DNA of 64,000 bases from Pontederia crassipes (Eukaryota > Streptophyta > Magnoliopsida > Commelinales > Pontederiaceae): NCBI GenBank assembly GCA_030549335.1, contig CM060193.1, positions 65,201,646 through 65,265,645 on the forward strand, read 5' to 3'. Numbering within the stretch: the stretch's first letter is position 1; each line of letters begins with the position of its first letter. The position numbers were made by a program, and so were the translations under genes. The notes under the pieces are model-generated. The model saw only the letters and a program-made list of their open reading frames with translations. It did no database searches and had not been told where the DNA came from. Shown here in pieces: positions 5,441-59,284 of this stretch.

Positions 5441-5843
5441 CAGTGTTGTTAAGCGGTTGGATCAGTTGGTTTAAAAGAATTTGATCCGCTTTGCTGCAAT
5501 CAAATTTTATCAAAACTTGGGTTTTTATGGGTTTGAGTGCTTCCATAGGGTGAAAATAAAAGAAATGTAATATTAAAAATTTGTCAATTCTCAATCAACC
5601 TTCAAAATGTCGACTGAGAATTTTTTTTCCTCTCTTCTTTGACTATTCATTTTAATTTTTTCAAATCAAAATTTATATCAATTATCAATACATTTTTGTG
5701 AACATATAAAACATGAAAACATTACAATTTATTAATTTAATTATTCTATATTAATTTATAATTATCCAATTTGATTATTTGATTATCCGACTTGATCTGC
5801 TGATTAATCTGAATTGATGGTCACATGGAGTTTTACAACATTG
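5441..5843. mobile_element. hAT-like MITE, family A (older copy)
   Basis: The element starts cagtgttgttaa and ends gttttacaacattg, so its ends are imperfect inverted repeats. The same terminal pattern occurs at 26531-27101, where an 8-bp target duplication is visible. Here the flanks (gttcaata / gtttaggg) match only partly, as expected for an older insertion. Internal sequence is AT-rich with no ORF. Confidence 0.5.
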
Positions 5844-49444: not shown

Positions 49445-50464
49445 ACAACAACAACAAAGCCTTATCCCACTAGGTGGGGTCGGCTACATGGATCATACGA
49501 CGCCATTCCGCTCTATTAGTAACCAAACCTTTCGATATATTATTCACCAATAGATCTTGCTCTATTAGTTCGCCAAGTGTCCGCCTTGGCCTCCCTCTCC
49601 CTCTTTTAATCGGACTCCAGATTATTTGATTTACTCTTCTTACTGGCGCATCTAATGGTCTTCTCTGAACATGACTAAACCATCTCAAATGATTCTCTAC
49701 CATTTTCTCACTAATAGGAGCCACTCCGACTCGTTCACGTATATGGTCATTCCTAATCTTATCTAATCTTGTATGACCACACATCCATCTCAACATCCTC
49801 ATTTCGGCTACCCCCACTTTACGTTCATGTTGTCCCTTCATAACCCAACATTCACTACCATATAACACTGCTGGCCTTATAGCAGTACGATAGAATTTTC
49901 CTTTAACTTTATTGGGTACTTTTCTATCACAAAGAACTCCAGTGGCTTTCCTCCACTTACACCAACCAGCTTGAATTCTATGATTAACATCGTCATCAAT
50001 CTCACCATCTTGTCTTACAATTGATCCTAAATATTTAAACTTTGTCACTTGAGGAATTATATCCTCCCATAACCTAACTTTCAAATCGTCTCTAAGTTGT
50101 TTATTTGTGAAATTGCTATACATATATTCTGTTTTATTCCTACTTAAACGAAAACCCTTTGACTCCAACGTATTTCTCCATATTTCCAATTTTGTATTAA
50201 TCTCTTCTCTTGAATCCGCTAAAAGTACTATATCATCCGCAAATAGCATGCACTTAGGTACCTCCTCTGTGATACTCTCGGTTATAGAGTCGATTATCGA
50301 GGAGGTACCTAAGTGCATGCTATTTGCGGATGATATAGTACTTTTAGCGGATTCAAGAGAAGAGATTAATACAAAATTGGAAATATGGAGAAATACGTTG
50401 GAGTCAAAGGGTTTTCGTTTAAGTAGGAATAAAACAGAATATATGCATAGCAATTTCACAAATC
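49445..50464 (-). mobile_element. RTE-clade LINE fragment with internal inverted duplication
   Basis: The (TTG)n tail is at 49445 and perfect 16-bp target duplications acatgatttaaaatca lie at 49429-49444 and 50465-50480. From the tail inward on the minus strand, about 49470-50270 encodes the C-terminal part of an RTE reverse transcriptase, from the catalytic FADDIVLLADS motif through KYLGSIVRQDG, RWMCGHTRLDKIRN and RWFSHVQRRPLDAPVRR. The 5' part (full RT N-terminus and endonuclease) is missing. Instead, a second copy of the FADD region is present in inverted orientation at 50299-50463. The reading frame is open through the retained 3' part. Confidence 0.88.
50103..50463. repeat. 165-bp palindrome arms within the LINE
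   Basis: Left arm 50103-50267 and right arm 50299-50463 are reverse complements with one mismatch noted (t/c near 50118), separated by a 31-bp spacer at 50268-50298. Both arms carry the FADDIVLLADSREEIN-coding segment, so it can be read on either strand. Confidence 0.93.
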
Positions 50465-51327: not shown

Positions 51328-52404
51328 TTAAATGCAGGGACCTAATGAGAGAGCCTCAATAGCTATCATCTCACTTGAACATGACTTTCCAACTATCTTT
51401 CCCAGATCAGTCTTCCTGCCAGCAAGGATCTTAAATGCAGGGACCTGATGAGAGAACCTCAATAGTTCACTTCTTGACAAGGTCCTAAACAGCTCGAAAC
51501 CTTCCACTGACTGTCTCTGGAACACTGCATCTGTCCCCTCCACCAAAATCAACGCAGCCACCGTCACCTCTCCTTCCTCGTCATTGAACCCAGACACTAC
51601 CTCCACCAGTTTGCGCACAAATCCCTTCTCCCGCTCATCCCACTTGTGATACACAGCCCAAATCTCCCCCCTCCTTGGAAAAATCCTGTAGGACGTCCTC
51701 GAGATATCAGCTTCGTCGTGCAGCTCCTCATTCAAGGCCACCAGGTGCGACAAGTCGCCGAGGTCCATGGTCATTGTCGGCGAGTCAGTCACCCGGAACA
51801 GGCCGCAAGCCACGGGGATGCCGTCATCTGCCCAACGACGCTCCTCCTCAGAGGTGGGATGGTACTCCAGTAGGGTGACCTCCACTGTGCCCTCCGTCGC
51901 CCCGATGCATTCGATGCGAGCATAGGCTAGAGGAAAGCCACATGCTTCATGCGGAACAACCCAAACTTGACCGACCTCAAAAATTCCTCTTCCTAGAATG
52001 TTTGTATCGATGCTACCGTCGTCTCCGGCGCGGCCGTCCATCTGAACCTGCCGAAATGGATGTCTCATGATCGGCATTGTCATCCCTTTGCGGGAGGAAG
52101 ATCTCCTAACCTTCGTAGTGGTTTTCGGAGCCTTGAGTTGACCGGTGCCAGAATCCTTAGCATCAGTGGTCGTCACCGAGGGCTTCTTCGCTACCGTCGA
52201 CGATCTCTGATGTTTCTTGGAGGAGGAACCGCCGCCGCCGCCGGCAGCTGCCGCCATGCGGGCTTCGAGAGATAGGAAGTGGTGGCGGCAGTAGATCTTG
52301 CCATGGAAGCGAGGCTCACTGCACCGCCAGGTCTTACCGTCGTTCCTATGACAGCGGAGTTCGTCTGGCGGTGGGGAACCAGCCCGGCGTCGGCGCCTCG
52401 CCAT
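51328..52404 (-). CDS. WRC zinc-finger + DUF3444 protein
   Basis: An intronless 358-residue ORF on the minus strand. Residues 17-42 form a perfect WRC motif, C-x9-C-x10-C-x2-H (Cys18, Cys28, Cys39, His42), seen in plant GRF transcription factors and in other nuclear proteins as a DNA-binding or interaction module. Basic clusters (RRRRR at 3-7, KVRRSSSRK at about 98-106) suggest nuclear import. Residues about 137-335 match DUF3444, a domain usually found at the C-terminus of plant DnaJ-like proteins: FEVGQVWVV, YRIFPRRGEIWAVYHKWD and LLRFSHQVPAFKI. No J domain is present. The function of DUF3444 is not established. The start ATG 52402-52404 leaves the WRC just inside the N-terminus and lies about 310 bp from the edge of a MULE. 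GC content falls from N- to C-terminal coding sequence, as in the other host genes here. Confidence 0.85.
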   Translation of the reverse strand: MARRRRRAGSPPPDELRCHRNDGKTWRCSEPRFHGKIYCRHHFLSLEARMAAAAGGGGGSSSKKHQRSSTVAKKPSVTTTDAKDSGTGQLKAPKTTTKVRRSSSRKGMTMPIMRHPFRQVQMDGRAGDDGSIDTNILGRGIFEVGQVWVVPHEACGFPLAYARIECIGATEGTVEVTLLEYHPTSEEERRWADDGIPVACGLFRVTDSPTMTMDLGDLSHLVALNEELHDEADISRTSYRIFPRRGEIWAVYHKWDEREKGFVRKLVEVVSGFNDEEGEVTVAALILVEGTDAVFQRQSVEGFELFRTLSRSELLRFSHQVPAFKILAGRKTDLGKIVGKSCSSEMIAIEALSLGPCI

Positions 52405-53023
52405 GGATCCCGGCGGCGATCACACAATGCTGAGCATTTAATCCGAGCGAGGGTTTAAGGTGGGGTTTTCAATGTAACGCTTACAGTCTCTAACAAACTC
52501 CTGTTCAAATCCTTAAAACAAAATAACAAAAAAAAAACCCAAAGAAAATAATCAAATTATCTCATCTTTTTTCCTTAATTTAATTTAAGGAGCTTAATGA
52601 GTTAATGGAAATATTATAAAGGTTTTTCCATTTATTTTGGAAACAAATCTTAAAATTTAGTTGTCTTTTAAGTGTTGCAATGAAACAAAATTGGTCAGAT
52701 TTGTTAGAAAACATAATATTTTGGGGAAAACGATCACGTGGATCCTTTTAAGAGTCCATATCCACGGCAGCAAATGCTGCGCGCGGTCCAGCGCAGTGAG
52801 GCGCGGTCCAACGTGGTGAGTCGCGGTCCGGTTCAATGGGGCAAAAGGTCCTGACTCCCGCGCGCTGCTTCGTTTTTGCCTCAAAAAATCGCAAATTCCT
52901 CTCTATTTTTCAGCAGCCCCGATCATCATCGCTGCAGTTCTTCGCCTTCGCCGCCGTGAGATCTAGGGCATCAACACGAAAAGTGAACCGGCCAACCCCG
53001 CTTTGACGCTCGTGCGCTGCATG

Positions 53024-53212
53024 TCTTCAACGTCGTCGCCCCGAACCCCGCCTGTGTTGATGCCGCCGTGAGATTACCTATCTTCAACGCCGTCGCCCCG
53101 GACCCCGTCTGTGTTGATACCGCCGTGAGATTGCCTGTCTTCAACGCCGTCGCCCCGGACCCCGCCATCCTTGGACGCCCGCCTGTGTTGATGCCGCCGT
53201 GAGATACAGGAC
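53024..53212. repeat. 57-bp subterminal tandem repeats of the MULE
   Basis: Three units start at 53024, 53081 and 53138 with tcttcaacgYcgtcgcccc and end in gccgtgagat. The third unit has a 17-bp insertion. Related blocks in opposite orientation lie near the right end (about 58490-58870). Confidence 0.85.
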
Positions 53213-53389
53213 ATCGACGCAAACAAGGTTACATATACATTGCACGATAGCCATATATGTAATGAATTTCCAAATACTCATTTCATGTAATGATTTTTGC
53301 CAACGCTGTTCCGGTCACCGACACCGCTGCCTCGGACATCATTGTTTACAAATTTTATTGCATTTAGAGGATGCCGTGTAGGACGTGAA

Positions 53390-55947
53390 ATGGAGGCGTC
53401 CCTTGAAGATGTTGTTGCCTTGGACACTTCTTCAATTTTTGTTGGAACAGAGGTAGAATTAAAAGTTGCTTTCGGATTTGATTAGTAAATTAATAATAAA
53501 TTAATCAAAATTGACATATGGCAACTGAATTGTGCAACTCTTTGATTAGCTTTCATGTATAGTTTTTGCAACCCAATTGTGCAACTCCTTGATTTGATGC
53601 AAGATATCATTTGTGGTGAAAATATATGCATATTGGTGGAATGATAATTAATCGTGTAATAGGATGTTGCTTCCATATTTCTTTTGAGCATATGATACAT
53701 GTATTTTTTATTTTAATGTTGCTTCACCAAGGTTTTTTTTTTGGCTAAATAGATTGGTACAAACAATAATATGAATGAAGGAACTTTGTTTGCAAAAGAT
53801 AATATGAAACATTGCTTGGGTATGTTATTTGATAGTGAAAAACAAGCTTATGAATTCTACAATCGATATGCCAAAGTTATTGGATTTTCTGTACGAAAAT
53901 CATTTACTGGAGAGAACAAGAAGACAAAAGAAATCGTTAGTAGATTGCTTGTGTGCTCAAAAGAAGGGTACAAGGAAATTACTGAGAAGAACATTGAAAA
54001 GTAGGTGAAAAGGAGAAGAGACATTCGTTCTGATTGTCAAGCTCACCTACAAGTTGCAATGAGAACAGATGAAATGTGGGAGGTTAAAAAATTTAAAGAA
54101 GAGCACAACCATCTTTTTGCTACACCATCAAAGTTTGGAAGGCTATGCTCACACAACACAATTGTGGATTCTCCCAAGGGAGTAATGACAACCTTGCATG
54201 ATGTTGGAATGGGGCCAAGTAAAATTGCCAAAGTCCTCAATTATTCCGGAGAACCATCCATTACTACTCAGAATGTAATGGATCATTTGAAGAAGATACG
54301 AAAGAACAATGTCAGCGAAGAATGTTTGGGCGTCATTAGATATTTTCAAAGTAAAATGGTCGACGATGAATGATTTATTTTTGAGTGGAAAGTGGATAAA
54401 AATAGTATAGCAAGGAGTGTTTTTTGGGCAGACTCAAGATCAAGAGATAGTTACTGCACGTTTGGAGATGTAAGTTTCAATACAACTTATAGAACAAACA
54501 AATTGTGCATGTCGTTCGCCCCCTTTACAGGCGTCAATCATCATAGGCAATCAATTTTATCTGGTTGTGCCTTATTAGCGGATGAAATCGAAGACACATT
54601 CATTTGGTTATTTAAAACATTGTTAAAATGCATGTTTGGAAAACACCCCATCTGTATCATCACAGATCAAGACATTGCTATGGGCAATGCAATTCGAAAA
54701 GTCTTTCCAAACACACGCCACATGTATTGCATATGGCATATTAAAAAAATGCGATGATCAATCTTCATGATTTATATGCTCAAGATGGCTTTGAAGCAGA
54801 TTATAAGAAGTGGATTCATGGCTCTTCCAGTGTTGAAGAATTTGATAAAACTTGGTTGTGCTTGAAGCAAAAATATGATATTCAGAATGATCATTGACTT
54901 GCTATTATGTATGCAAAGCGTCATCATTGGGCATCAACTTATTTGAAGAATGTATTTGCAGCAGACATGCACACAACTCAAAGATCTAAAATCATCAACT
55001 CTTTTTTTTATGGATATGTGAATTTCAATACATCCTTAGTCGATTTTGTACAGCAATATGACAAGGCAATTTGTTCTCGTCGTGAAGCAGAAGAGCAAGA
55101 GGACTTCAAGTGTATGAACAATCAGACTGCTATAATTACCAAAAATCAATTAGAATTACATGTAGGTTCAATCTACACTGAGAAAAATTTTGCCTTGTTC
55201 CAAAAGCAATTTTTACACATGTTTGATTTTCATTGTACTAAAATTGAGGACATGTCACACAAAGTTGTTTATTCGGTATATTTGGGAGGGGCTGAAGACA
55301 AAGAGAAGAACATTATGGTTTACGATGATGAAATGAGTGTTTCAGTCAATTGTTCTTGCAAGATGTACGAACGAGATGGAATATTATGTTCTCATATTTT
55401 ATGCGTGATGAATACTGAAAAGGTCATAAGGATTCCTGAACAATACATCCTTAAACATTGGACATTGGATGCTCGATACTCAAAGACGCGGGCAATTCAT
55501 CTGAATGCATACGAAATGAGCAACGGTCAACGAATTATTATCCCAATTCAAAAATTAGATTTCAAATATAATATGAGAATGGCTACTGAAATGGGCTTGC
55601 GGTCACCTGAGCACTTTGATGTTGCATCTATACTTGCTGAAGAGTTTGTCAAAAAACTATCAGTTATTAACTCAGCTCCTGTTACTTTCACCAAAACTAT
55701 TAGTTCACAAGGAGTAGATATTATTATACATGATCCTCCTCGTGTGAAATCAAAAGGAAGACCCAAAAAAGCAAGTAGGATTAAATCTGACATTGAAATT
55801 TCAATGTCACAAACAAAAAAGAAAGTAGCAAAAAGAAAAAAACAAAAGGATCATCACACAATCATGGGTTCCTCTTCTAAGGTTTTCTTCGCAATAACTT
55901 ATTCATTAGATTTCCTTCACCCAAAGATGTTTAATTACTATGAGTAA
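53390..55947 (+). pseudogene. FAR1/FHY3-like MULE transposase, decayed
   Basis: A probable short exon 53390-53452 (MEASLEDVVALD...) splices in phase 0 to an exon from 53753. Domains in order are a FAR1 DNA-binding domain (KQAYEFYNRYAKVIGFSVRKS, about 53840-54120), a MULE transposase core (VFWADSRSRDSY, FGDVSFNTTYRTNK, CIITDQDIAMGNAI, YCIWHIKK, about 54420-54745), a helical region, and a SWIM zinc finger (CSCKMYERDGILCSH, about 55350-55396). The C-terminus is Lys-rich (to 55947). The gene is broken by in-frame stops at 54002, 54371 and 54895 and by a frameshift at about 54741-54757; the last 346 codons (54907-55947) stay open. It resembles Jittery/Far-Red Impaired-type transposases, from which plant FAR1 light-signalling factors were domesticated. 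Context inside intact TIRs shows it is a transposon gene, not a host FAR1 gene. Confidence 0.9.
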
Positions 55948-57657
55948 TAAATATTTTATTGCAGATTTTTTATACACGACTGGAAGACAACATATCATTC
56001 TCATGCACGTCGCCATAGGTATCACATATTGCTTATCTCATATAGAAATTGATTTTTCTATTTATATAGGGGTGGCATGGAGAAGCTGATGTCTTTTGAT
56101 CGCTGATACATGGATGTTAATGAAGCCATTGTGTATCTTCAATTATAAATCTATTATTTTGTGGGCAATCTGGGTAATGATATTATGTATTTTGTATAAA
56201 AGTAATGATATTGTCTCCTTATGCTTGGGAACCTATCCATCTCTGATGCCATTCTCTACTGTAAAAGATCCAGTGTAAGCTTCTGAATCATGTCTGTTTC
56301 CATATTCCATTTTCTTCTCTTAAATTTTATTTGATCGATCATTGTAATTAGCCATAGATTTTGATTCTAACTTGTTCTGTACCTTTTTTTTCTCTTTTCA
56401 GGGCCAAGACAGCAACTAAAGAAGACTGCAGATAAAAAGAGTGTCCAAAGTAGTATGGACTGAACACTGCAATTAGCAAAGCTATTCTAGGTTGGCATAA
56501 AAAGAACACTGCAATTACAAAACTACAAGTTTTGGCATAAAAAGGAACACTGCAATGAGTTTTAAGATGATGTGTTCTTCGCGTCTGACATTAAGAAAAA
56601 TGATGTCTCAGTAGAAAAGTTGAATCTTCAATTATGTATTTTGTATAATGATATTGTCTACTTGGGAACTGGTAGAATGATTTGGGACAATCTCTAATCT
56701 AGTTGTTGTAGTAGATTCTGTTGAAAGATTGATTTGTGTTTATTTTTCCCAATTGTGATATCTTCTGGCTGGCTATTAAAGTTGTGCTAAATATTGTATG
56801 AATGTGAGAAAGGACCTTGCAGAAACATAGCATGAGGTCAAGTGGTTGAAGGATTATGAGCTACAGCCGAGACAGTAGAGGAAATGGATTGCAAGAAGGG
56901 GGCAAGGAACAAGCTGAGCAGCCCCATCAACGACAATGATGACTTAAAATGTACATAACAGGGAAGATTGAATGTAGATAGTAACTCAGTCTCAGCACAC
57001 AATTTGATATTGCAGATGGACAATTAACAATACAATATTTGATAATCGACCCATAGGAAAAGAAAATCAATTAGTTTATCATTATCGATCTAATCTATTT
57101 TCTTTGAAAAGTCGAATCTATAAAGTTTGAGAAAATGAAATGCAAGATGTCGAAAACTAATCACTACAAAAAGTAGAAGTTAATCTAAAAATAGAATACA
57201 TCTGGATGCATCTGGATTTGAGTTGAGTTGTCAATACATCTGGATGTTGTACATTTGGTTAATTTGTAGAATCCTAAGCATGAATTGCATGCACTTGAGA
57301 TTGTTCTTTGGGAACCTCTGCTGCAAAGTTTGGATCGTTTCTGTTTGTTTCACCCCGTAACATATTTATGCATGAAAAGTGCATACAATTATAGAATCAT
57401 GAAACTCGATGTTGCAAGAACGTATATAACCTTCAAATGAATCATAGTTTCATTCAGGACAATACAAAAATGCATTCAATAAATGGAAATAACAACAAAT
57501 ACACCAGCACATGAAACAACAAATACACCAGCACAACAAAGTCTTCATACCACAACGACAAAGTCTTCATACCACAACTAATACTAAAGCATAACAACTA
57601 ATACATCAGCACATCATCCAACGACAAAGTCTTCATACCAAATCTAAGAATATCAAA
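55948..57657. other. MULE interior between the two genes
   Basis: No further coding domain was recognised. 57485-57645 holds imperfect short tandem repeats (caacaaatacaccagcac and acaaagtcttcataccac units), probably the 3' flank of the GRF gene. Confidence 0.45.
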
Positions 57658-58171
57658 TCACACAATTTTCATACCACAACTACTAATACTTAATAAACTA
57701 AAACAAGTCCATTCTCCAAACCACATAACAGAATATAAGTCCGGAAAAAAACACAAGATTTCCATCCTTCGAATCTTATCATCACGCTCCACAACATTAT
57801 TGAGCAATCCTATAAGTATCGATCTTTCTTTGTCTCCTTTACGTTTCGGGTTTTGTGTCCTTTCGGCCTCAGAAAGCAATCCTTTTAAGATGTTCTTACG
57901 TCGGTCTTCTATGTCCGGATCGAACCATTGAAAAAAACCGCAATCACTTGATGGACATTTGATCTGCAAAAACACTTTTTCTTAGCAAAGCACGAACAAG
58001 AAACTATTAATTAACTTGTGTATAAAAATGAACTTTATATACTCGATAATTTGTGCATCCCCAAAATCGTCTTCCTGGATTCTTTTTCGTCCACGAAATA
58101 TTTAATTTTGCCTTCTCCCCACATGCGCAAAATGGAGTATCATCATATGAACTGTAGGCTAAAGATGACAT
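57658..58171 (-). CDS. GRF-type zinc-finger protein carried by the MULE
   Basis: Two exons on the minus strand, 58171-58034 and 57963-57658, join in phase 0 over a GT-AG intron to give 147 residues. The join rebuilds a GRF zinc finger: CACGEKAKL, SWTKKNPGRRFWGCTNY, then CPSSDCGFFQWFDPD. This fits the family pattern of paired Cys residues, an NPGRxFxxC centre and CxFFxWxD. A Lys/Arg/Glu-rich, probably coiled segment follows (about residues 60-115), then a hydrophobic tail with CFFPDLYSVMWFGEWTCF that may be a membrane segment. Small GRF proteins with this layout are common in plant genomes, and the domain binds single-stranded nucleic acid in other proteins. It converges on the transposase gene, as mudrB converges on mudrA in maize MuDR. 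No stop or frameshift was seen. It could be a captured host gene or a true second transposon gene. Confidence 0.7.
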
Positions 58172-58370
58172 CTTCAAGCAAATTAAAGAAAACTTGTCAT
58201 GTTATGGAACTTAAATGATTCATGAAATAGCAAAGTGAAGATGACAACTACTGAACATTAAAATAGCAGAAGATGACACAATGAAATTGATAACATTTAC
58301 ATACTGAACTGTTGGCCAAAGATGACATCTTCAAACAAATTAAAAAACTAAAACTTGTCATGATAAACAA
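58145..58370. repeat. imperfect tandem duplication over the start of the GRF gene
   Basis: gaactgtaggctaaagatga at about 58148 and gaactgttggccaaagatga at about 58302 begin two copies of a segment that includes the GRF start-codon region and continues to aaaacttgtcatg. The second copy lies upstream of the gene. Confidence 0.75.
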
Positions 58371-59284
58371 TTACATAGTGAACATTAAAGTAGAAATAGC
58401 AACATAGATCAAACACCCACTTTGGCATCTGAACAAAGACACTGATGCTTAGTCATGCAACTTACATGGACTTCTTTCAAGTCGATGTCCTAGATCTCAC
58501 GATGTCGGCGACGCAGTGGGGGGAGCTGGGAAGGTCTGGGGCGACTAAGGCACGTCGTCTAAGGCAGTAGGCGCACGGACATCCAAGTTAGTGATCGGAG
58601 CAATGGCTGCTCATCATTGGCAAAAATCAGAACATGAAACAAGTCTTTAGAAAATCATGCTTAGAGTGGATCAAGAATGGATGGCTGGCGTGCAACGTAG
58701 ATGTAACCTTTTTTGCGTCGACGCCCTAGATCTCACGGCGGCAACAGTTCGGGGGGCGTCCAAGGGTGTCGAGGTCTGGGGCGGCGGCGTTGAAGGCAGG
58801 CAGCGCACGAGCATGCAAGCGGGGTTGGTCGGTTCCCTTTTTGTGTTGATGCCCTAGATCTCACGGCGGCGGGCGGCGAAGGGGGCGTCGAAGGGGGGTT
58901 GGCGGCGTCGTGGAAGGCGGCTCCAAGGTGAAGAACGGCGGCGATGATGATCGGCAAATGGCGTGACTCGGGGCGACTACTTCAGAGAGACGATCCGAGG
59001 CTGCTGAAAAATAGAGAGGAATCCGCGATTTTTTGGGGCAAAAACGAAGCAGCGCGCGGGAGTCGGGACCTTTTGCCAATCGAACTGGACCACGACTCAC
59101 CACGCTGGACCGTGCCTCACCGCGCTAGACCGCGCGCAGCATCTGCTGCGGCAGTCCACAATGTGGACTCTTAAAAGGATCCACATGATCCTTTTCCCCT
59201 AATATTTTTTCTCTTTACATTTTGTTTCTCATACTTTTTTAATAATTCATTTTATTTGGAAAAAATAATCTCATACTAATGTTT

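What the first reader, a model, noticed from the sequence alone, without database searches (positions are those of the whole stretch)
52723..59199. Intact-looking MULE that carries two convergent genes: FAR1-type transposase and a GRF zinc-finger protein
Seen: perfect 9-bp TSD, long TIRs, a FAR1/MULE/SWIM transposase gene on + and a spliced GRF zinc-finger ORF on -. The layout parallels maize MuDR (mudrA/mudrB convergent), but mudrB is unrelated to GRF fingers. Inference: FAR1-type MULEs may have their own second gene, a small ssDNA/RNA-binding GRF protein. The many small GRF-domain proteins annotated in plant genomes would then be transposon genes.
Basis: partly seen in the sequence, partly recalled or inferred. 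Interest (0 to 1): 0.72.

Follow-up and report, generated by a model that had tools for sequence, protein, structure and literature searches.

The report
Jumping gene with zinc-finger partner gene
In one plant genome, many Mutator-type jumping genes carry, besides their transposase, a second small gene for a GRF zinc-finger protein facing it, and selection has kept that gene's protein sequence, so it looks like an overlooked helper gene of the element rather than a stray piece of host DNA.

Summary
The layout is real: a 6,477-bp Mutator-like element (52723-59199) with a perfect 9-bp target-site duplication, ~590-bp inverted repeats, a FAR1/MULE/SWIM transposase gene on + and a two-exon, 144-aa GRF gene convergent on -. 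It is not intact: the transposase has three in-frame stops and a frameshift. GRF is not a one-off capture. Of the 40 scored transposase relatives closest in DNA, 31 have a convergent GRF within 8 kb. Genome-wide, 112 of 113 GRF/MULE neighbours of this type within 8 kb are convergent (shifted controls: at most 5 places). An intronless GRF class sits the same way beside MuDR-type (PF03108) transposases: 90 of 90 pairs; 67 of 71 close relatives have it. Each GRF class shows purifying selection like that of its transposase (w 0.23/0.24 and 0.28/0.27). So GRF is a recurrent second gene of two MULE types in this genome. Nine paper searches listed no description of it; a 2019 survey table gives FAR1-bearing Jittery-group MULEs one ORF. 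A single-strand-binding helper of transposition or reinsertion is the likeliest function, but that is inference.

The parts
52714..52722 (.). left copy of the 9-bp target-site duplication, TAATATTTT
   Evidence: read directly, identical to the right copy
52723..53308 (.). left terminal inverted repeat, begins GGGGAAAACGATC
   Evidence: collinear inverted-repeat arms I1-I7 and I11
53390..53452 (+). probable first transposase exon (21 codons, MEASLEDVV...)
   Evidence: inferred by eye from an in-frame ATG, a GT donor at 53453 and an AG acceptor ending at 53752; not tested further
53753..55860 (+). main transposase coding stretch: FAR1 DNA-binding domain, MULE catalytic domain, SWIM finger; broken by three in-frame stops and one frameshift
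   Evidence: Pfam matches; stops and frame
57658..57963 (-). GRF gene exon 2 (second half of the GRF ribbon, charged stretch, hydrophobic tail, stop)
   Evidence: open frame, AG acceptor; spliced product matches PF06839
57964..58042 (-). 79-bp intron inside the GRF domain
   Evidence: GT...AG; by eye the break falls at the same domain position in L041, L042 and L044
58043..58171 (-). GRF gene exon 1 (43 codons, CxC and NPGRRFWGC half of the ribbon)
   Evidence: open frame; dN/dS 0.12 between copy groups A and C
58612..59199 (.). right terminal inverted repeat
   Evidence: collinear inverted-repeat arms
59200..59208 (.). right copy of the 9-bp target-site duplication, TAATATTTT
   Evidence: read directly

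Best explanation
The element is a decayed copy of a two-gene, FAR1-type (Jittery-like) MULE family. Its second gene, on the opposite strand and facing the transposase, encodes a small GRF zinc-ribbon protein that belongs to the transposon. Shown here: the layout, its recurrence, its constraint and its co-divergence with the transposase. Inferred: the protein binds single-stranded DNA (as reported for the GRF fingers of NEIL3), perhaps multimerises through its helical tail, and assists the transposition reaction where DNA is single-stranded. That could be the staggered cut ends, the 9-nt gaps left at the target, or the reinsertion/repair step, a role like the one reported for maize MURB. My confidence is about 0.93 that GRF is a genuine element gene and about 0.4 that it works as a transposition or reinsertion helper; the score given is for the whole statement.
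For: Transposase-chosen sample: 31 of 40 places scored by DNA have a convergent GRF within 8 kb, and none of the 40 has one in another arrangement. Wider set: 376 MULE places (merged) against 335 GRF places (merged) give 113 neighbours within 8 kb, 112 with GRF downstream on the opposite strand, median 2.9 kb; 40 shifted controls gave mean 1.8, maximum 5 places. The one exception is a GRF that pairs convergently with a nearer MULE. Six of the seven copies with both ends found (21 examined, all chosen for holding GRF exon 1) have perfect and different 9-bp TSDs, so they are separate insertions of a GRF-bearing element. Selection between copy groups A and C: GRF w 0.23 (exon 1 0.12), transposase w 0.24, dS 0.53 and 0.45; the two wrong frames of exon 1 give 1.35 and 1.52. 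GRF and transposase distances correlate across 15 copies (Mantel r 0.87, 0 of 2000 permutations). A MuDR-type class repeats the pattern: 90 of 90 pairs convergent; 67 of 71 relatives at 70% identity or more have GRF, 1 of 18 below 40%; w 0.28 and 0.27 over 7 pairs. GRF and ssDNA: PMC9266487 (passages). Closest solved structures are NEIL3 GRF domains, weakly (E 0.014 and 0.03).
Against: Nothing here tests function, expression or binding. MULE places without a GRF among the places held: 9 of 40, 264 of 376, 38 of 128 in the MuDR-type set. The GRF searches scored only 150 of 1,080-2,008 candidates each and copies decay, so these are not clean absences; but L043, with a 681-aa open transposase frame, shows no GRF motif downstream, so GRF is not proven essential. 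My motif scan missed the diverged GRF exon 1 of L042, seen only by eye, so it could miss others. Of 16 GRF neighbours of the 150 best-scoring FAR1-domain places within 9 kb, 2 are not convergent; these were not looked into. The C-terminal tail is weakly constrained (w about 0.6). Maize Jittery is listed as an active one-gene MULE (PMC9168764 passage). One genome only.
Confidence: 0.6

Rival explanations
1. Regulatory or anti-silencing second gene: the GRF protein binds RNA or single-stranded DNA of the element and counters host silencing or tunes transposase expression, as the vanC product of Hiun does, and takes no part in cutting or joining.
For: Known second genes of MULEs include an anti-silencing factor (Hiun vanC; PMC6446971 passage). 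GRF fingers may also bind RNA (PMC10969213 passage). The conservation data do not tell the two roles apart.
Against: Pfam and NCBIfam scans found no domain other than GRF in the GRF proteins tried. A finger with general single-strand affinity would need element specificity from elsewhere; that is an argument, not a test.
Confidence: 0.3
2. Passenger: a host GRF gene captured by one MULE and carried along without function (Pack-MULE-like hitch-hiking).
For: MULEs do capture host gene pieces (PMC6446971 passage), and three of 20 fetched sister copies have lost GRF exon 2 (L025, L034, L040).
Against: Purifying selection in the true frame, like that on the transposase; one arrangement in 112 of 113 and 90 of 90 pairs; recurrence in two transposase types.
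Confidence: 0.03
3. Two independent gains: FAR1-type and MuDR-type MULEs each acquired a GRF gene from the host or by exchange, because a single-strand-binding partner is useful to any MULE.
For: The GRF genes read in the FAR1-type loci have an intron inside the domain, and the MuDR-type ones have none; by eye the two classes share little beyond the GRF core.
Against: Same place and orientation in both, which a common two-gene ancestor would also give. No tree of the two GRF classes with host GRF genes was made.
Confidence: 0.5

Closest known systems
Jittery-type plant MULEs (FAR1 in the N-terminus; group 36 of Dupeyron et al. 2019, PMC6446971; table and passages seen)
   Same: Transposase with FAR1 at the N-terminus and SWIM at the C-terminus, TIRs; 9-bp TSDs are stated for Jittery and TED in PMC9569675 (passage).
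   Different: The survey table gives this group one ORF, 8-bp TSDs and TIRs of 39-292 bp; maize Jittery is a 3,914-bp element with one gene. The element here has a second, convergent GRF gene, a 9-bp TSD and TIRs near 590 bp.
Maize MuDR (mudrA/mudrB)
   Same: Two genes in opposite directions, long TIRs; MURB is reported as crucial for new insertions (PMC9168764 section 23).
   Different: The window transposase carries FAR1, and PF03108 was found upstream of 0 of 244 places of its type. That mudrB is unrelated to GRF is recalled and comes from no call.
Abermu MULEs with antisense ORFR (PMC9168764; section 23 and passages read)
   Same: Antisense second ORF in a MULE, Ka/Ks below 1.
   Different: MuDR-related transposase; the passages seen name no domain in ORFR, and it differs between distant plants. 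Whether any ORFR is a GRF protein was not tested.
MULEs with other second ORFs: MutB of Mutyl, vanB/vanC of Hiun, plant mobile domain ORFs often in antisense (PMC6446971, table and passages)
   Same: Accessory gene beside the transposase, in several cases antisense.
   Different: Other protein families; the word GRF does not occur in the main text of that survey (0 occurrences).
GRF zinc fingers of NEIL3, APE2 and TOP3
   Same: Same Pfam domain (PF06839) and a weak sequence match to NEIL3 structures 7omk and 7jl5.
   Different: There the GRF is a module of a larger repair enzyme (NEIL3, APEX2: PMC9266487 passage; TOP3: PMC10969213 passage); here it is the only domain found in proteins of about 98-144 aa.

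Membership tests
Mutator-like element (MULE) | target-site duplication of about 9 bp | tested here: met
   perfect TAATATTTT on both sides
Mutator-like element (MULE) | long terminal inverted repeats | tested here: met
   about 590 bp each side
Mutator-like element (MULE) | MULE transposase domain PF10551 | tested here: met
   3.2e-29
Mutator-like element (MULE) | uninterrupted transposase in this copy | tested here: not met
   three in-frame stops and one frameshift; bears on the copy, not on the family
Jittery/FAR1-type MULE | FAR1 N-terminal and SWIM C-terminal domains | tested here: met
   window: all three domains over their cut-offs. FAR1 and MULE over cut-off in L041, L042 and L044; SWIM of L044 just under its cut-off (19.3 against 19.6) and not reported for L042. 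Of the 244 similar MULE places, 25 have one of the 150 scored FAR1 places upstream; the rest are typed by similarity only
Jittery/FAR1-type MULE | single ORF, as listed for the group in PMC6446971 | tested here: not met
   second convergent GRF gene in the window and within 8 kb of 31 of 40 close relatives
MuDR | MuDR-type DNA-binding domain PF03108 before the transposase | tested here: not met
   0 of 244 places of the window's type, against 48 of 71 places of the other class; 150 of 268 PF03108 candidates scored
MuDR | mudrB-homologous second gene | not tested
   no mudrB sequence was used
GRF zinc-finger protein (PF06839) | domain score over the curated cut-off | tested here: met
   36.4 bits against 25.9 for the spliced product
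GRF zinc-finger protein (PF06839) | binds single-stranded nucleic acid | not testable with these tools
   needs protein; reported for NEIL3 GRF fingers (PMC9266487 passage)
Pack-MULE (captured host gene fragment) | no transposase gene, carried host fragment | tested here: not met
   transposase sequence present; GRF under purifying selection

The most novel reading that the evidence does not exclude
Small GRF proteins are the general second gene of plant MULEs, occurring in both the FAR1/Jittery and the MuDR-like types, and supply the single-strand-binding function that turns excision into reinsertion. One-gene relatives such as maize Jittery, described as excising without reinserting, would then be elements that have lost it, and many annotated small plant GRF proteins would be transposon or ex-transposon genes.
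Probability: 0.22. Interest if true: 0.86.

Novelty: new variant of a known kind. Interest (0 to 1): 0.68.

Why it matters
Second genes of MULEs are few and poorly understood. A recurrent, constrained GRF partner in two transposase types gives a defined protein to test for the reinsertion step, bears on the reported excision without reinsertion of Jittery, and offers a reason for the many small GRF genes: in this genome 23 of the 46 GRF places reported by the Pfam search sit convergent to a MULE place among those held. Such genes should be checked for flanking transposons before they are counted as host gene families.

Tried and rejected
One-off capture was tested and is disfavoured. Chance neighbourhood was rejected by shifted controls. 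A first dN/dS table included a spurious alignment of L040, whose exon 2 is deleted; one search masks exon 2 of L025, L034 and L040 and replaces it. One search used a hand-picked 80 of the 150 places, two of which repeated places; one search uses all 150. One search's own GRF list was left out; four of its 40 places are not in the 335 used there, and adds them for the 40 places. The copy groups A, B and C were set by me by eye after seeing the data. All 20 sister loci were chosen for holding GRF exon 1, so they cannot show how often GRF is missing; one search was run for that. TSD search: L042 matched only inside a (TA)n run, which is uninformative, and L041 gave no pair that passed (its output was cut). 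L043 was a negative for GRF. Structure prediction of the GRF protein was not run: it is spliced, so the window does not give it letter for letter, and the other loci came from a source the tool does not accept. Paper searches aimed at a GRF gene in a MULE, none listing one. In one search only 40 of 401 papers were listed, and the papers were seen as listings except PMC10969213. The two papers use GRF for a transcription-factor family and in a reference title (passages). One search looked for GRF and ssDNA; PMC2528002 (passages) added nothing on GRF. Repbase and subscription journals were not searched.
Full report
Observation. The window holds a Mutator-like element at 52723-59199 (6,477 bp). 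A perfect 9-bp duplication, TAATATTTT, flanks it, and inverted-repeat arms pair 52723-53308 with 58612-59199. The + strand encodes a transposase with FAR1, MULE and SWIM domains, but its frame carries three stop codons and one frameshift, so this copy's transposase is broken. On the - strand a two-exon gene (58171-58043, then 57963-57658, 79-bp GT-AG intron) reads 144 aa and matches the GRF zinc ribbon at 36.4 bits, over the 25.9 cut-off. The element lies in a 1.13-Gb genome of unnamed species; that it is a plant I infer from its genes.

Sister copies. The GRF exon-1 region has 39 other scored places in the genome (40 of 217 candidates scored, 97% down to 78% identity). I fetched the 20 best of the 39; with the window this makes 21 copies, all chosen for holding GRF exon 1. 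Seven had both ends recognisable, and 6 of the 7 (window, L022, L025, L026, L029, L030) have perfect and mutually different 9-bp duplications; L027 does not. Seventeen of the 20 sister loci hold transposase sequence in the stretch fetched; L024, L034 and L036 do not. GRF exon 2 is missing in L025, L034 and L040. To ask the question from the other side, I took the 40 transposase places scored by DNA (876 candidates): 31 have a convergent GRF place or 34 within 8 kb, 9 do not, and none has one in another arrangement.

Selection. Codons of all copies were aligned to the window frames, and codons with stops or gaps were left out. Between groups A (7 copies near the window) and C (4 most diverged), GRF has dN 0.121, dS 0.528, w 0.23 (exon 1 alone 0.12), and the transposase dN 0.106, dS 0.449, w 0.24. 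The two wrong frames of exon 1 give 1.35 and 1.52. Between A and B w is 0.45 for GRF and 0.57 for transposase, and between B and C 0.32 and 0.30. Within the groups A, B and C it is 0.39, 0.59 and 0.30 for GRF and 0.65, 0.70 and 0.54 for transposase, as expected where copies have decayed after insertion. There the wrong frames are not well separated from the true one (within A exon 1 gives 0.36 in frame, 0.61 and 0.28 out of frame), so the case rests on the diverged groups. The last 46 codons of GRF are weakly constrained (w 0.58-0.63). Pairwise distances of GRF and transposase correlate across 15 copies (r 0.87, 0 of 2000 permutations) and across the 12 of groups A and B (r 0.89, 0 of 2000).

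Recurrence in FAR1-type MULEs. Transposase places merge to 376; GRF places merge to 335. Within 8 kb there are 113 neighbour pairs; 112 have the GRF downstream of the transposase on the opposite strand, at a median 2.9 kb. The one exception is a GRF (C27:2303355) that pairs convergently with a nearer MULE. Forty shifted controls gave on average 1.8 places, at most 5. The 112 places are 30% of 376; the GRF searches scored only 150 of 1,180 (46 reported), 1,765 or 2,008 candidates, so this is a lower bound. By identity to the window transposase, 20 of 43 (80% or more), 8 of 23 (75-80%), 22 of 77 (70-75%) and 0 of 7 (below 70%) had one, which does not use the GRF list. These places are called FAR1-type by similarity: the FAR1 domain itself was read in the window, L041, L042 and L044, and 25 of 244 places have one of the 150 scored FAR1 places (of 2,177 candidates) upstream on the same strand. 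Of the GRF places within 9 kb of those FAR1 places, 14 are convergent and 2 are not; the 2 were not looked into. Fetched examples: L041 and L042 (GRF convergent, domain split by an intron at the same place by eye), L044 (same), and L043 (681-aa open transposase frame, no GRF motif before the TIR). L042 has an uninterrupted 758-aa frame with FAR1 and MULE domains; its GRF exon 1, which my motif scan missed, appears to have lost one cysteine of the CxC pair.

A second class. One intronless GRF gene from the Pfam list (98-aa open frame; L045) lies convergent to a transposase with a SWIM finger that hardly resembles the FAR1-type one (21.6 bits). Searching with both (150 of 386 and 150 of 1,080 candidates scored) gave 128 distinct transposase and 134 distinct GRF places: 90 pairs within 8 kb, 90 of 90 convergent, median 1.5 kb, 20 shifted controls 0-1. 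By identity to the query, 67 of 71 (70% or more), 19 of 34 (50-70%), 3 of 5 (40-50%) and 1 of 18 (below 40%) have the GRF; 89 of the 134 GRF places have such a transposase. The MuDR-type DNA-binding domain PF03108 (150 of 268 candidates scored) lies upstream on the same strand in 48 of 71, 19 of 34 and 14 of 23 (below 50%), but in 0 of the 244 FAR1-type places, so the classes are distinct. Over seven GRF/transposase pairs (L045 and six fetched out of the 90, chosen by me for coverage and identity spread; one GRF has a stop), w is 0.28 for GRF and 0.27 for transposase; wrong frames give 1.46 and 0.80 for GRF, 0.84 and 1.04 for transposase. The distance correlation there (r 0.99, 3 of 2000) rests on seven pairs and probably on one outlier. 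The ten best PF03108 places, with open frames of 595-732 aa, which look like domesticated MUSTANG-like host genes (a label from recall), have no GRF place within 8 kb; four of them are also among the places without a call-49 GRF.

Mechanism. Shown: in this genome GRF belongs to the element's layout, sits in copies with separate insertion sites, is constrained about as strongly as the transposase between diverged groups, and nearly always faces it. [quoted passage not shown] A 9-bp TSD implies staggered cuts and so 9-nt gaps at the target (general knowledge). MURB, the second protein of MuDR, is reported as crucial for insertion (PMC9168764 section 23), and Jittery, a FAR1-type element with one gene, shows apparent excision without reinsertion (PMC6446971 passage). 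I therefore favour a single-strand-binding helper of transposition, most plausibly at reinsertion; an anti-silencing role is the main rival. No experiment here bears on this.

Known or new. Additional MULE genes are known: mudrB, MutB, vanB/vanC, antisense plant-mobile-domain ORFs, ORFR (PMC6446971 table and passages; PMC9168764 section 23 and passages). The survey table gives ORF number 1 for the plant part of the FAR1-bearing Jittery group, and GRF does not occur in its main text. Nine searches of the held library listed no paper describing a GRF gene in a MULE; the listing was cut at 40 of 401, and Repbase and most subscription papers were out of reach. I rate it a new variant of a known kind.

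Limits. One genome, unnamed; capped search lists; hand-copied coordinates; no expression data; gene models from sequence alone.

Noticed in passing
window 51328-52419 (-) and 52723: The element lies about 320 bp upstream of the first methionine of a gene with WRC and DUF3444 domains, a position typical of MULE insertions near gene starts (recalled).
   Followed up: no
window 49470-50462 (-): 330-aa open frame that reads like the end of a non-LTR retrotransposon reverse transcriptase (motif FADDIVLL, recognised by eye).
   Followed up: no
G000 C16:47342548, 47368535, 47394527: Three GRF places of equal score spaced 26 kb apart, each with a MULE place about 2.5 kb away: probably a local triplication that carries the two-gene element.
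   Followed up: no
L041 around 240-284, L042 around 426-472 and 5708-5728, L043 around 2927-2964: Three fetched elements of other families lie beside long (TA)n runs, L042 with (TA)n on both sides of GGGGAAAGG ends, which suggests insertion into TA microsatellites as described for MuTAnT (abstract start seen in the listing).
   Followed up: partly
G000 C15:5690331, C9:44161469, C10:37362431, C16:54182953 and six more PF03108 places: The ten best PF03108 places have open frames of 595-732 aa and no GRF place within 8 kb; probably domesticated MuDR-type host genes.
   Followed up: partly
L045 1-1830 and G000 C6:12225479: In the MuDR-type element of L045 the PF03108 domain lies about 3.9 kb upstream of the SWIM part, with a long stretch without transposase frames between; possibly an insertion.
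   Followed up: no
G000 C9:52440374/52442665 and C10:27327675/27329255: Paired GRF places without a MULE among the places held, 1.6-2.3 kb apart, likely duplicated host genes with two GRF fingers (TOP3A-like by recall).
   Followed up: no
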